Shown one piece after another: positions 58,876-63,189 of a stretch of 64,000 nucleotides of DNA (its first letter is position 1; the number at the start of each line of letters is the position of its first letter). This stretch comes from Acidimicrobiales bacterium (GTDB lineage: Bacteria > Actinomycetota > Acidimicrobiia > Acidimicrobiales > SZUA-35): contig JAHDBV010000014.1 of NCBI GenBank assembly GCA_020630195.1, positions 1 to 64,000 of the forward strand. The letters are read 5' to 3'. Below the pieces are notes generated by a model. The model was not told where the DNA came from and did no database searches. It saw nothing but the letters and a program-made list of their open reading frames with translations. A program made the position numbers and the translations under genes.

Positions 58876-60117
58876 TCAGGCCAGTGCGTCGCGGATCTCG
58901 TCGGCCGACGCAGCGGAGGTGAGGAACTGCCGTCCCTTGATCGCGTGGCGGGGACGATTGACCGCGAGCAGGCCACAGGGTGCCCCGCCCTCGTCGAGGT
59001 AGAGCTGCGCGAACCTGCCCTCGGCCGGATCGCCGTGGATGATCTCGCGACCGCGCCCGGCGATGCCGGCGAACTGGATCTTCCAGTCGTACTGGTCCGA
59101 CCAGAACCACGGCACCGGATCGAACGGATCGATCGGCTCCCCGGCGAGGTCGGCCAGGATCCGACGCCCGGCGTAGCCACCCTGGTCGACACCGTTGTCC
59201 CACTGCTCCACCCGCATCGGGCGGCCGTAGCGGGGGTGGTCCCAGTTGGCCACGTCGCCCGCGACGACCACACCGGGCGCGGCGAGGCAGGTGGCGTCGG
59301 CTCGCACGCCGTTGTCGATCTCCAATCCGGATCCACCGAGCCACTCGGTGTTCGGGATCGCGCCGATGCCGACCACGACCGTGCGGGCTTCGACGGTCGA
59401 GCCGTCGGCGAGCCGGACGCCACGGACGTGTTGGTGGTCGCCGTGGTCGTCGATCTCGAACCCGTCGACACCGACCCCGAGGCGCACCTCGACACCTTCG
59501 ACTCGATGTCGCTCGGCGATCATCATGCCGGCCTCCGCGTCGAGCACGCGGGTGAGCGGCGCCTCGGCCGCTTCGATCATCGTGACGTCGTGCCCGGCCG
59601 ACCGGAACGTCGCCGCCACCTCGCCACCGATGAATCCCGCACCGATCACGGCGATCGGGCCGCCTCGGTCGGCCACCGCCGCACGGAGCCGGTCGGCGTC
59701 GGCCTTCGACCGCACGACGTGCACGTCGCTCAGACCGTCGGTGTCGGGAAGACGACGGGCGCGAGCGCCCGTCGCGATGACGAGGCCGTCGAAGCCGACC
59801 TCGTCGGGACCGTCGTCCATCGACAGGGTCCGCACGGTGCGGGCCTCGAGATCGAGCCCGACCGCGTCGGTCCCGAGACGCCATTCGACCCCGAGGGCGT
59901 CGGGATCCTTCGAGGGCCGCAGGAGCAGCTTCTCGGCGTCCCAGTCACCACCGAGATACTGCTTCGACAGTGGCGGCCGGTCGTAGGGGTGGTCGGCCTC
60001 GTCCCCGATGAGGACGATCTCGGCATCGGCACCGCTGCGCCGGATGGCCTGGGCGGCGTGCACCCCGGCCAGGGACGCGCCGACGATGACGATCCGCGGC
60101 GCCCCGTTGTCGGACAC
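58876..60117 (-). CDS. ferredoxin reductase-like FAD/NAD(P) oxidoreductase
   Basis: 413-aa flavoprotein with two dinucleotide folds (VIVGASLAGVHAAQAIRRSG; VIGAGFIGGEVAAT) and a C-terminal reductase domain. It resembles the NADH-dependent reductases that feed ferredoxins of cytochrome P450 or Rieske oxygenases. GTG start two bases after the ferredoxin stop. Confidence 0.92.
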   Translation of the reverse strand: MSDNGAPRIVIVGASLAGVHAAQAIRRSGADAEIVLIGDEADHPYDRPPLSKQYLGGDWDAEKLLLRPSKDPDALGVEWRLGTDAVGLDLEARTVRTLSMDDGPDEVGFDGLVIATGARARRLPDTDGLSDVHVVRSKADADRLRAAVADRGGPIAVIGAGFIGGEVAATFRSAGHDVTMIEAAEAPLTRVLDAEAGMMIAERHRVEGVEVRLGVGVDGFEIDDHGDHQHVRGVRLADGSTVEARTVVVGIGAIPNTEWLGGSGLEIDNGVRADATCLAAPGVVVAGDVANWDHPRYGRPMRVEQWDNGVDQGGYAGRRILADLAGEPIDPFDPVPWFWSDQYDWKIQFAGIAGRGREIIHGDPAEGRFAQLYLDEGGAPCGLLAVNRPRHAIKGRQFLTSAASADEIRDALA

Positions 60118-60119
60118 GG

Positions 60120-60311
60120 TCAGCCCTCGAGCGTGATGGCCTGCTTGGGGCACCGATCGGCGGCGTCACGCACCTTGTCGTGCAGACCCTCCGCCGGGTT
60201 CTCGTCGAGGACGTACAGGAAGTCGTCGTCCCGCACCTCGAACACCTCGGGGGCGATCTCCATGCACACGGCGTTGGATTCACACAGATCGAAATCGACG
60301 ACGACCTTCAT
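60120..60311 (-). CDS. 3Fe-4S-type ferredoxin
   Basis: 63-aa ferredoxin with three Cys, C10-x5-C16 and C54P, the pattern of a [3Fe-4S] ferredoxin in which the middle Cys is missing. GAGGAG is six bases before the ATG. It forms a two-gene unit with the reductase; no P450 or oxygenase gene is in the window. Confidence 0.92.
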   Translation of the reverse strand: MKVVVDFDLCESNAVCMEIAPEVFEVRDDDFLYVLDENPAEGLHDKVRDAADRCPKQAITLEG

Positions 60312-60323
60312 GGTCAGCTCCTC

Positions 60324-60353
60324 ACATCGGGGGTTCGAACGCAGGCCCGATGT
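60324..60353. promoter_or_regulatory. inverted repeat upstream of ferredoxin operon
   Basis: ACATCGGG-N14-CCCGATGT lies immediately upstream of the ferredoxin ribosome binding site, in the 122-bp gap before the SDR gene. Perfect 8-bp arms suit a TetR-like operator or a leader hairpin. The rest of the gap shows no other signal I can support. Confidence 0.45.
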
Positions 60354-60433
60354 TGCCATGAGCATGCCGCACTCCGCTGCCGACTCCCGAATCGCCGACG
60401 TCGGGACACCCCACCCGCGATGACCGACCGATG

Positions 60434-61189
60434 TCAGTAGCGGGTGTAGCCGCCGTCGATCACGATCTCGTCGCCGGTGTGCCAGGGGTTGGACGGGTCG
60501 CAGAGCCACGCACCGGCGGCGGCGAAGTCGGCCGGCACACCCCAGCGGCGTACGGGGGTCCGCTTCGTCGTCGCGTCGAGGAACTTGTCGTACTGGCGGG
60601 CACCTTCGGTCATCTCGGTCTCGACCCACCCGGGGATGATCGAGTTGGCCCGGATGCCGTAGCGGGCGAACTCGACGGCCAACCCACGCATCATCGCGAG
60701 CATGCCCGCCTTGGAGTGGGCGTAGGGCTGCGCCCCGGGTGCCCCGTGGATCGCGGAGGTGGACGACGTGCCGACGAGCGCACCACCCTCACCCCGTTCG
60801 ACCATGTGGCGGGCGGCCGCCCGCAGCGTCAGGAACGCGCCATCGGTGTTGATCGCCTGGACCCGGCGCCACGTCTCGAGGGTCTGTTCGAGGAAGGGGG
60901 CGCCCCCGGACACACCGGCGTTGGCCACCGCCGCGTCGACCTTGCCGAGCTCGTCGAGGATCGCGGCGAAACTCGTCTCCACCTGCTCCTCGTCCGACAC
61001 GTCGACCCGTTGGGCCATCACCCGATGGCCATGGGCCCGGAGCCGTTCGGACGCGGCCGCCAGCTTCGTGTCGTTCGTCCCCCAGATCGCCACATCGGCA
61101 CCGGCCGCTGCACAGCCCTCGGCGATGCCGAGGCCGATGCCGCCGTTGCCACCCGTCACGAGCACCACACGTCCACTGAGATCGGTCAT
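60434..61189 (-). CDS. SDR family oxidoreductase
   Basis: 251-aa classical SDR: TGGNGGIG, NAGVS, Ser in GTSSTSAI, Tyr-x3-Lys in YAHSKAGML, and the closing IVIDGGYTRY. FabG/gluconate dehydrogenase-like. The ATG follows CAGCAT by six bases. Confidence 0.9.
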   Translation of the reverse strand: MTDLSGRVVLVTGGNGGIGLGIAEGCAAAGADVAIWGTNDTKLAAASERLRAHGHRVMAQRVDVSDEEQVETSFAAILDELGKVDAAVANAGVSGGAPFLEQTLETWRRVQAINTDGAFLTLRAAARHMVERGEGGALVGTSSTSAIHGAPGAQPYAHSKAGMLAMMRGLAVEFARYGIRANSIIPGWVETEMTEGARQYDKFLDATTKRTPVRRWGVPADFAAAGAWLCDPSNPWHTGDEIVIDGGYTRY

Positions 61190-61270
61190 GGCCCGATGCT
61201 GGTGCGCGACACCGGCGGGCGCCAACCGGCGCCCGCCGGTGACGGGGGTGTTGGGAGATCGAGGGGTGGG

Positions 61271-61933
61271 TCAGAGCTCGGCGCGGGCGAGCTCCACCAC
61301 CTCGTCGGCGTCGAAGAAACCGGACCAGCCGGCGATCGGGTTGCCGTTGCGATCGACGAGGATCGCCGTGGGCTGGCCCCGGACGCCGTAGTAGGCCCAG
61401 GTCTCGAAGCTCTCGTCCCAGATCATCGGGAACGAGGCGACACCGGTCCGATCGACGAAGCCCTGGGCCTGGCCGAAGTCGTCCTGAGCCCCCATGCCGA
61501 CGACGGTGACCACATCTGCGTTGTCTCGAGCGAACTGCTCGACCTCGGGCGCTTCGGCCCGACAGGTGGGTCAATGCGGGGCGAAGAACCAGAGGAGCAC
61601 GGCCTTGTCGCCACCGGCGAGGGCCTCTCCGAGGTTCACCTCGGCGCCGTTGTAGATGTCGAGGACGTCCACGTCGGGGAAGAGGTGTGGCTCGGGTGCG
61701 GCGCCCTCGGTCGTGGTCGAGTCGGCCTCGGTGGTGCCGGCGGCGGCCTCGGTCGACTCGGTGGAGGTGGCGTCGGCCTCGGTGGTCTCGGCGGCGGCGG
61801 TGGTGGCGGTCGTTCCGAGCGTCGCGCCGGTGGCGGCGCGCTCCTCGGGGTCGACGCCACCGCCACATGCGGCGAGCGCGAGGCTCGAGGCCAGCAGGAG
61901 CGCGGCGGTGCGCGCAGGCGTGCGGGGGTGCAT
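61271..61933 (-). CDS. secreted thiol oxidoreductase (MPT53/DsbE-like), probable selenoprotein
   Basis: 220 codons including an in-frame TGA at codon 121 (61571-61573). The protein is a lipoprotein (lipobox LALAAC, Cys23) with a Thr/Ala/Glu-rich linker (about 38-80) and a thioredoxin-fold domain. The active-site region reads LLWFFAPH-TGA-PTCRAEAPEV, where mycobacterial MPT53/DsbE/DsbF have APWCPxC. The frame stays open through the rest of the fold (VGMGAQDDFGQAQGFVD, WAYYGVRGQPTAILVD with the cis-Pro) to the stop at 61271. A hairpin directly 3' of TGA is SECIS-like. Reading TGA as selenocysteine gives a UxxC enzyme. An in-frame TTG at 61945 is an alternative start. A disabled CxxC gene is the competing explanation. 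Confidence 0.82.
61542..61567 (-). promoter_or_regulatory. SECIS-like hairpin following in-frame TGA
   Basis: On the mRNA, three bases after UGA, the sequence folds as ACCU-(GU bulge)-CGGGC-loop CGAAGC-GCCCG-AGGU: a 4-bp lower stem, a 5' bulge containing U, a 5-bp upper stem and a 6-nt apical loop with G second. Bulged U and loop G are recognised features of bacterial SECIS elements. The loop starts 15 nt after UGA, near the short end of the usual distance as I recall it. Confidence 0.65.
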
Positions 61934-62019: not shown

Positions 62020-63189
62020 TCAGGGCAGGTACGGCACCGGGTCGATCGCCGTGCCGTTCGACCGGATCTCGAAGTGCAGGTGCGGTCCGGTGGAGTTGCC
62101 CGTGGAGCCGACGTAGCCGATGACGTCGCCCCGGTTCACCCGGTCGCCGGCGGACACACCGAGCTGCGACTGGTGGGCGTAGAGCGTGGTGATCCCGCTG
62201 CCGTGGTCGATCACGACGGTGTTGCCGTAGCCGTTCTGCCAGCCCGACGAGATCACGGTGCCGCCCTTCGCCGCGGCGATCGGCGTCCCGGTGCTCGCAC
62301 CCTGGTCGATGCCCTTGTGGAGGCGACGGGTGCCGAAGATCGGGTGGACCCGGTAGCCGAAGCCCGAGCTGATCGGTGCGTTGATCGGCCACTGGAACCC
62401 GGAGACCGATGCTTCACCCGGCTGCGGGGCGGCGCCGCCGGGCCGCGGTGCGGGCGTGGCGAGCCGGTTGATGAGTTCGGTCAGCTCCGCGTCCTCGGCG
62501 TCGAGCTCGGCGACGAGGCCTTCCCACTCCGACACGCGGGCGGCCATCTCGGCGCGAAGTTCGGCCTGGAGTGTCTGGATCTCGGCCAGCTCGGCGACGG
62601 CGACGGCCCGCTCGGCCTCGAGCGCCTGGGCATCGGCCGCCGCAGCGGCCGCTTCGGCCCGCAACGCCTCGGCGTCGCCCCGCAACACCCGGATCTCCTC
62701 GAGCACGGCGACGGCGTTGCCGCCGACGCTCTCGAGCAGCGCCTGCTGGCGAAGCGAGGCCGAGAAGTCGCCATCGAGCAACGGAGACGAGCCCTGATCG
62801 CTCGAGGTGACGAAGCCCCGGATGGCGAGATCGGCGAGGCGGGTCTCGAGGATGTCGGCATCGGCGTCGAGCTCGGCGATCGCGACCTCGGCGTCGAGCT
62901 GCCGGGCGGCGGCTTCGTCGATCCCCCGCTGGATCGACGCCATCTCCTCTTCCTGCGCCGTCACGGCGACGGTGATGGCGTTGAGTGCGGAGAGGACCTC
63001 GGCGTCCTCGGCCCGAGCCGCGTCGAGTTCGGCGGCGGCGTCGGCCCGTTCGGCCCGGATCCGTTCGCGCTCGGCGCGTGCTTCGGATTCCGACGACTGG
63101 GCGCCGGCGGCGAAGGGCCCGACGACGAGGAGTCCGAGCAGCACGGACCAGAGTGCGGCCCCGAGGCCGACACGAAGCAGTCGATGCAT
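62020..63189 (-). CDS. M23 family metallopeptidase with coiled coil
   Basis: 389-aa exported protein: signal peptide (about 1-30, ending FAAGAQS), long EnvC-like coiled coil (about 32-240), Pro/Ala linker and LytM/M23 domain with HKGIDQG and HLHFE zinc motifs. It probably cleaves or regulates cleavage of peptidoglycan cross-links during division. GGAGG is seven bases before the ATG. Confidence 0.93.
   Translation of the reverse strand: MHRLLRVGLGAALWSVLLGLLVVGPFAAGAQSSESEARAERERIRAERADAAAELDAARAEDAEVLSALNAITVAVTAQEEEMASIQRGIDEAAARQLDAEVAIAELDADADILETRLADLAIRGFVTSSDQGSSPLLDGDFSASLRQQALLESVGGNAVAVLEEIRVLRGDAEALRAEAAAAAADAQALEAERAVAVAELAEIQTLQAELRAEMAARVSEWEGLVAELDAEDAELTELINRLATPAPRPGGAAPQPGEASVSGFQWPINAPISSGFGYRVHPIFGTRRLHKGIDQGASTGTPIAAAKGGTVISSGWQNGYGNTVVIDHGSGITTLYAHQSQLGVSAGDRVNRGDVIGYVGSTGNSTGPHLHFEIRSNGTAIDPVPYLP

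What the first reader, a model, noticed from the sequence alone, without database searches (positions are those of the whole stretch)
61271..61933. Probable selenoprotein: MPT53/DsbE-like secreted redoxin with a TGA in the active site
The thioredoxin active site reads APH-TGA-PTC exactly where homologues have the first Cys of CxxC, and the reading frame continues open for 100 codons with clear fold-specific motifs (VVGMG, GQPTAI). This is the pattern of Sec replacing Cys, not random decay. The protein carries a lipobox, so it would be an extracytoplasmic selenium-dependent thiol oxidoreductase. Standard annotation would split it into a truncated lipoprotein and a fragment.
Basis: partly seen in the sequence, partly recalled or inferred. 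Interest (0 to 1): 0.92.

Follow-up and report, generated by a model that had tools for sequence, protein, structure and literature searches.

The report
Selenocysteine-containing envelope thioredoxin-like lipoprotein
An actinobacterium from an uncultured group reads a UGA 'stop' codon as the rare amino acid selenocysteine in the active site of an exported thioredoxin-like protein; the case is very strong, but selenoproteins of this general kind have been predicted before.

Summary
In detail: on the minus strand, codon 121 of an MPT53/DsbF-like lipoprotein gene (61271-61933) is TGA, exactly at the first Cys of CxxC, and the frame stays open for 99 codons. The selenoprotein reading is about as secure as sequence alone allows. 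The genome (an Acidimicrobiales MAG) encodes selA, selB and a selD that itself has Sec; its tRNA-Sec is cut by a contig end, with 54 nt left that are identical to the congener's gene. The congener orthologue (81%) keeps the TGA. Of 80 relatives in named genomes, 76 have TGA and 4 have Cys at that position. In the order, 72 of 73 genomes with the TGA form have selA, against 1 of 8 with the Cys form. A hairpin 34 nt after the UGA (loop AGUUC) meets the published bacterial SECIS constraints, is more stable than synonymous shuffles and co-varies. The AlphaFold model (pLDDT 95) matches M. tuberculosis DsbF and MPT53. It is a new member of a known kind (Trx-fold UxxC selenoproteins; a 'redoxin family UxxC' entry is already listed in reviews). 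Less expected: a paralogous subfamily with a double-Sec UxxU site, and no DsbD/CcdA or VKOR detected in the two genomes of the genus.

The parts
61271..61933 (-). Selenoprotein CDS (220 aa read with TGA=Sec; ATG 61933, alternative TTG 61945; stop TGA 61273-61271)
   Evidence: Pfam Redoxin 1.3e-11 and AhpC-TSA 3.8e-11; AlphaFold model pLDDT 95
61868..61933 (-). Signal peptide of a lipoprotein (MHPRTPARTAALLLASSLALAA)
   Evidence: read from sequence; an N-terminal hydrophobic stretch ending in ...AC is also present in most homologues
61865..61876 (-). Lipobox LAAC (lipidated Cys at 61867-61865)
   Evidence: sequence
61571..61573 (-). In-frame UGA read as selenocysteine (codon 121)
61562..61573 (-). 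Redox motif Sec-Pro-Thr-Cys (UxxC) at the N-terminus of a thioredoxin helix
   Evidence: helix H47-62 begins at the active site
61545..61562 (-). Hairpin 1 (TCGGGC-CGAAGC-GCCCGA), accessory stem of the Sec-insertion region; loop starts 14 nt after UGA
   Evidence: mean z -1.8 to -2.1 against synonymous shuffles in U homologues, about 0 elsewhere in the gene and in most Cys homologues
61526..61542 (-). Hairpin 2, the likely bacterial SECIS (TCGAGC-AGTTC-GCTCGA); loop starts 34 nt after UGA, -8.0 kcal/mol
   Evidence: meets the published bSECIS constraints (tested); mean z -2.7, loop AGTTY in 75 of 76 and C-G/T-A covariation
61367..61378 (-). cis-Pro loop GQPT opposite the active site
   Evidence: alignment and model
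62020..63189 (-). Upstream neighbour, M23 peptidase with coiled coil (syntenic in close relatives)
60434..61225 (-). Downstream neighbour, short-chain dehydrogenase (syntenic in close relatives)
60120..60311 (-). Downstream single-cluster ferredoxin (syntenic)
58876..60153 (-). Downstream ferredoxin/NAD(P)H reductase-type flavoprotein (syntenic)

Best explanation
This is a selenoprotein gene. SelB delivers Sec-tRNA-Sec to the UGA at codon 121, directed by an RNA hairpin in the coding sequence just downstream (hairpin 2, loop AGUUC, 34 nt after the UGA; hairpin 1 helps position it). The product is exported, lipidated and anchored on the outer face of the membrane. There its thioredoxin-fold domain carries a Sec-x-x-Cys pair that cycles between a selenolate/thiol form and a selenenylsulfide, making it a thiol-disulfide (or peroxide-linked) oxidoreductase of the DsbE/MPT53/ResA type. 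Shown by sequence evidence: the frame, the Sec position and its conservation, the machinery, the fold. Well supported: the SECIS. Inferred: export and lipidation, the redox chemistry, and whether it works as an oxidase, a reductase or a peroxidase; its electron partner is unknown.
For: selA (392 bits) and selB (250 bits, above the curated cut-off) are adjacent. selD (354 bits) has its own in-frame TGA in the 'GAG-TGA-ACKL' site. tRNA-Sec: 54 nt at the very start of contig C64 are identical to the 5' half of the congener's tRNA-Sec, including the UCA anticodon, and the downstream gene is syntenic; 29 of 39 genomes of the family have a full tRNA-Sec at 64-71 bits, and ARAGORN calls SeC in all ten loci checked. 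Orthologue in the congener: 81% identity, same single TGA. In the order, nearly all homologue matches carry exactly one TGA. The 30 orthologue loci read were all UxxC with no other in-frame stop. In 80 named relatives, 76 U and 4 C. TGA form with selA 72 of 73, Cys form with selA 1 of 8, Fisher p = 1.8e-8. Hairpins against synonymous shuffles, covariation, published bSECIS constraints met. Fold: model pLDDT 95, best PDB matches M. tuberculosis DsbF 3ios and MPT53 1lu4.
Against: No protein or 75Se evidence. The tRNA-Sec gene in this MAG is incomplete (contig edge; genome about 82% complete). No curated Rfam SECIS family matches, which is usual for bacterial SECIS elements. The published bSECIS constraints alone are weakly specific: 45% of synonymous shuffles also pass. 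The phylogenetically independent test of hairpin covariation has only 5 pairs (4.3 agree on average, 0 disagree; p 0.06-0.5). One genome with the TGA form (G203, 83% complete) had no selA hit, and one Cys-form genome has selA.
Confidence: 0.95

Rival explanations
1. A decaying gene or a sequencing/assembly error: the TGA is a nonsense mutation of the usual TGC/TGT Cys codon.
For: TGA is one base from TGC/TGT, and the gene comes from a draft MAG.
Against: The same TGA stands at the same codon in an 81%-identical congener and in 76 of 80 relatives, with no other stops or frameshifts and strongly conserved flanks.
Confidence: 0.01
2. TGA is reassigned genome-wide (to Trp, Gly or Cys) and is simply a sense codon here.
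For: None specific to this genome.
Against: The gene itself and its three neighbours on the same strand end in TGA; normal selA/selB/selD/selC are present; the TGA aligns only with the redox Cys.
Confidence: 0.01
3. The UGA acts mainly as a selenium-responsive switch: without Se, a truncated lipoprotein (Ser/Thr-rich tail without a Trx domain) is the functional product.
For: The N-terminal product would still be a secreted lipoprotein; UGA termination always competes with Sec insertion in bacteria (general knowledge).
Against: Conservation is concentrated after the linker and through the Trx domain on both sides of the UGA; the N-terminal tail is low-complexity and varies in length; Cys homologues encode the full-length protein.
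Confidence: 0.03

Closest known systems
Mycobacterium tuberculosis DsbF (PDB 3ios) and MPT53/DsbE (PDB 1lu4)
   Same: Best sequence matches in the PDB (E 1.5e-16 and 2.6e-12) and best structural matches (TM 0.77 and 0.72); exported Trx-fold oxidoreductases with CxxC at the same place.
   Different: Sec replaces the first Cys; APH rather than APW precedes it; the organism also has Sec-bearing paralogues.
'Redoxin family protein' UxxC selenoprotein (review PMC13188914 Table 1, PF08534, HEU0032618.1; PMC9312934, MBA3499694.1; credited there to the 2008 GOS and 2016 comparative-genomics surveys)
   Same: Same top Pfam family (PF08534) and the same UxxC motif.
   Different: I could not compare those accessions letter by letter, so identity of family is likely but not shown; in the passages searched neither review mentions Actinobacteria or gives a SECIS structure for this family.
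Rcas_1661 family thioredoxin-like (seleno)lipoprotein (NCBIfam NF041057; the review lists this accession as 'DsbG-like protein')
   Same: A (seleno)lipoprotein with a Trx-like fold and UxxC.
   Different: This protein scores 16.6 bits against a cut-off of 190: not a member.
Prx-like UxxC/UxxU selenoproteins (GOS Prx-like 2; Prx-like thiol:disulfide oxidoreductase) and SelL
   Same: Relevant to the UxxU paralogue: two Sec in one redox motif.
   Different: The GOS Prx-like 2 proteins are distant Prx homologues (PMC2398784); the paralogue found here is an MPT53-like lipoprotein with a changed cis-Pro loop. The window protein scores 18.4 bits against a cut-off of 120 for NCBIfam SelL_rel_redox.

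Membership tests
Bacterial selenoprotein (Sec encoded by UGA) | In-frame UGA at a position where homologues have a redox Cys | tested here: met
Bacterial selenoprotein (Sec encoded by UGA) | Host encodes SelA, SelB, SelD and tRNA-Sec | tested here: met
   tRNA-Sec partial at a contig end, full in the congener
Bacterial selenoprotein (Sec encoded by UGA) | bSECIS hairpin: loop 3-9 nt with G in its first two positions, stem 4-16 bp, 16-37 nt after the UGA, MFE <= -7.5 | tested here: met
   AGTTC loop, 6 bp, spacing 34, -8.0 kcal/mol (constraints from PMC13188914)
Bacterial selenoprotein (Sec encoded by UGA) | Selenium physically present in the protein | not testable with these tools
   needs 75Se labelling or mass spectrometry
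DsbE/MPT53/ResA-type extracytoplasmic thiol-disulfide oxidoreductase | Thioredoxin fold with the active site at the start of the first Trx helix and a cis-Pro loop opposite | tested here: met
DsbE/MPT53/ResA-type extracytoplasmic thiol-disulfide oxidoreductase | CxxC active site | tested here: inconclusive
   UxxC in place of CxxC; TGA-less homologues keep CxxC
DsbE/MPT53/ResA-type extracytoplasmic thiol-disulfide oxidoreductase | Exported, membrane-anchored or secreted | tested here: met
   signal peptide and lipobox read in the sequence; no localisation experiment
DsbE/MPT53/ResA-type extracytoplasmic thiol-disulfide oxidoreductase | Membrane redox partner (DsbD/CcdA or VKOR) in the genome; usual for the type, not part of the protein itself | tested here: not met
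   no PF02683 and no PF07884 match in either genome of the genus, one of them 96% complete; DsbB and other routes were not tested. This lowers 'works in the standard Dsb pathway', not the fold assignment
NCBIfam NF041057 Rcas_1661 (seleno)lipoprotein | Score above the curated cut-off of 190 bits | tested here: not met
   16.6 bits

The most novel reading that the evidence does not exclude
Acidimicrobiales run an envelope thiol-redox system built largely on selenium: several lipoprotein redoxins per genome with UxxC sites, plus a conserved UxxU (double-Sec, possible diselenide) paralogue with an altered cis-Pro loop, operating without the usual DsbD/CcdA or VKOR membrane partners. That would imply a different electron route, or direct peroxide chemistry.
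Probability: 0.25. Interest if true: 0.65.

Novelty: new member of a known kind. Interest (0 to 1): 0.45.

Why it matters
It adds a clade-wide set of envelope selenoproteins, including double-Sec forms, in a little-studied actinobacterial order. No curated NCBIfam model covers it above cut-off, so standard annotation is likely to truncate it. A cultured strain (Ilumatobacter nonamiensis) makes selenium incorporation and the role of Sec in extracytoplasmic thiol chemistry directly testable. It is also a well-conserved case for studying bacterial SECIS structure, with a covarying hairpin inside a coding sequence.

Tried and rejected
(1) tRNA-Sec by Rfam RF01852 in the own genome: best hits are tRNA-Ser (tga, cga, gga), tRNA-Leu and tRNA-Gly, not Sec; resolved with the congener's selC as a DNA query. 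(2) No tRNA-Sec near selAB or selD. (3) Rfam SECIS families: no match in the gene. (4) Scanning the whole window for other UxxC/CxxU-type in-frame TGAs: very many chance patterns and nothing else convincing. (5) Hairpin 1 as the SECIS: considered first, but its loop starts 14 nt after the UGA and its register varies; hairpin 2 fits the published constraints better. (6) Ferredoxin and flavoprotein neighbours as redox partners: the synteny is limited to about 20 of 80 relatives, so I do not claim a functional link.

Full report
What is there. The gene lies on the minus strand, ATG 61933 to TGA 61271 (alternative TTG start 61945). Read with TGA as U it is a 220-aa protein: a lipoprotein signal peptide ending in LALAAC, a Ser/Thr/Ala/Glu-rich linker, and a thioredoxin-fold domain with WFFAPH-U-PTC-RAEAPEVEQ. 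The in-frame TGA is codon 121 and 99 sense codons follow it. Pfam gives Redoxin and AhpC-TSA. No NCBIfam model is met at its cut-off, so an automatic pipeline would have no such model to rescue the gene. An AlphaFold model of the domain has mean pLDDT 95. Its best PDB matches, by sequence and by structure, are M. tuberculosis DsbF (3ios) and MPT53 (1lu4), followed in the structural search by ResA.

The machinery. The genome is a 4.9-Mb MAG of Acidimicrobiales in 200 contigs, about 82% complete (relatives named). It has adjacent selA and selB and a selD that carries its own in-frame TGA in the active site, GAG-TGA-ACKL. The Rfam tRNA-Sec search found only tRNA-Ser and other tRNAs. The congener's tRNA-Sec, used as a DNA query, located the missing gene: contig C64 begins inside it. 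Its 54 remaining bases are identical to the 5' half of the congener's tRNA-Sec, anticodon included, and the next gene is the same. So all four parts are there, one cut by the assembly. In the family, 29 of 39 genomes have a full tRNA-Sec.

The U/C test. The congener's orthologue is 81% identical with one TGA at the same place. Over 298 genomes of the order, 81 have a homologue, nearly always with exactly one TGA. The 30 orthologue loci read in detail are all UxxC with no other in-frame stop. Among 80 relatives from named genomes, 76 have U and 4 have C; the four come from Microthrixaceae, Solirubrobacterales, Sporichthya and an unplaced actinomycete bin. The presence of selA tracks the codon: 72 of 73 genomes with the TGA form have selA, only 1 of 8 with the TGA-less form does (Fisher p = 1.8e-8). 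These counts are not corrected for relatedness. Where I read the TGA-less loci (L073-L076) they have Cys at that codon.

The Sec-insertion signal. Two hairpins follow the UGA. Tested against shuffles that keep the protein, the stretches coding for them are more stable than expected in the TGA genes, while stretches before and after are not (mean z -2.1 and -1.5 against about 0; -1.8 and -2.7). Most Cys homologues show neither. Hairpin 2 (window 61526-61542, TCGAGC-AGTTC-GCTCGA) keeps one register in the family, with loop AGTTC in 49, AGTTT in 26 and AGTTA in 1 of 76. Its second pair is C-G in 41 and T-A in 23 of 69 distinct sequences, where the change swaps Arg for Gln in the protein and a silent base in a Val codon. 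The tree needs at least six such switches; in the strict independent-pairs test all informative pairs agree, but there are only five. Hairpin 2 meets all constraints published for bacterial SECIS (loop with G then U, 6-bp stem, 34 nt from the UGA, -8.0 kcal/mol; PMC13188914). 76 of 77 TGA genes have a hairpin satisfying the loop, stem and spacing rules, against 45% of shuffles. The genome's own selD also has a hairpin of this type (spacing 32). I therefore take hairpin 2 as the SECIS and hairpin 1 as an accessory stem; this assignment is inference.

How it probably works. SelB bound to the hairpin delivers Sec-tRNA to codon 121. The protein is exported, lipidated and exposed on the outer face of the membrane, where Sec121 attacks disulfides (or peroxides) and Cys124 resolves the intermediate. 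Direction and partner are open. Neither the DsbD/CcdA transmembrane family nor VKOR gives a match in the two genomes of the genus, although both searches ring in control genomes. DsbB was not tested. The downstream short-chain dehydrogenase, ferredoxin and flavoprotein reductase are syntenic in close relatives only.

What is known. Trx-fold UxxC proteins are among the commonest bacterial selenoproteins. Inventories already list a 'redoxin family protein' with UxxC (PMC13188914, PMC9312934) and several Trx-like and Prx-like UxxC families from ocean metagenomes (PMC2398784). I found no paper in the held library on selenoproteins of Acidimicrobiia. I therefore call it a new member of a known kind.

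Most unexpected side finding. The same genome has three paralogues with in-frame TGA: a tandem pair on C78 (APW-U-PTC and APT-U-TTC) and one on C15 with two TGAs, APW-U-PH-U. The UxxU form is conserved: 16 copies in 15 genomes of the order, all UxxU, with QRTY or a close variant where relatives have QPxF at the cis-Pro loop. UxxU motifs are known in Prx-like selenoproteins, but this MPT53-like form with a changed cis-Pro loop deserves its own study.

Noticed in passing
L023/L181 (own genome G000:C15:20386-20946, minus), L182-L195: A paralogous lipoprotein redoxin with a double-Sec UxxU active site (WFWAPW-U-PH/PF-U-R), 16 copies in 15 Acidimicrobiales genomes, with the cis-Pro loop reading QRTY instead of QPxF.
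   Followed up: partly
L025 and L028 (G000:C78:40566-41431, minus): A tandem pair of further TGA-containing redoxins (APW-U-PTC and APT-U-TTC), also tandem in the congener (L024, L027).
   Followed up: partly
L093:1-54 (start of G000 contig C64): The assembly breaks inside the tRNA-Sec gene; in some relatives the gene also lies within a few hundred bases of a contig end (G007, G029, G032), which might reflect an integrated element or strain variation at selC.
   Followed up: no
own genome G000 and congener G001: No match to DsbD/CcdA (PF02683) or VKOR (PF07884) in either genome despite several extracytoplasmic redoxins: the electron partner of the envelope thiol system is unknown.
   Followed up: partly
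L018, about 1405-2433, minus (G000:C185): selD is itself a selenoprotein gene (TGA in GAG-U-ACKL), with a SECIS-like hairpin 32 nt after the UGA.
   Followed up: yes
window 58876-61225, minus strand: Short-chain dehydrogenase, single-cluster ferredoxin and flavoprotein reductase directly downstream of the redoxin, same strand, syntenic in many relatives of the family.
   Followed up: partly
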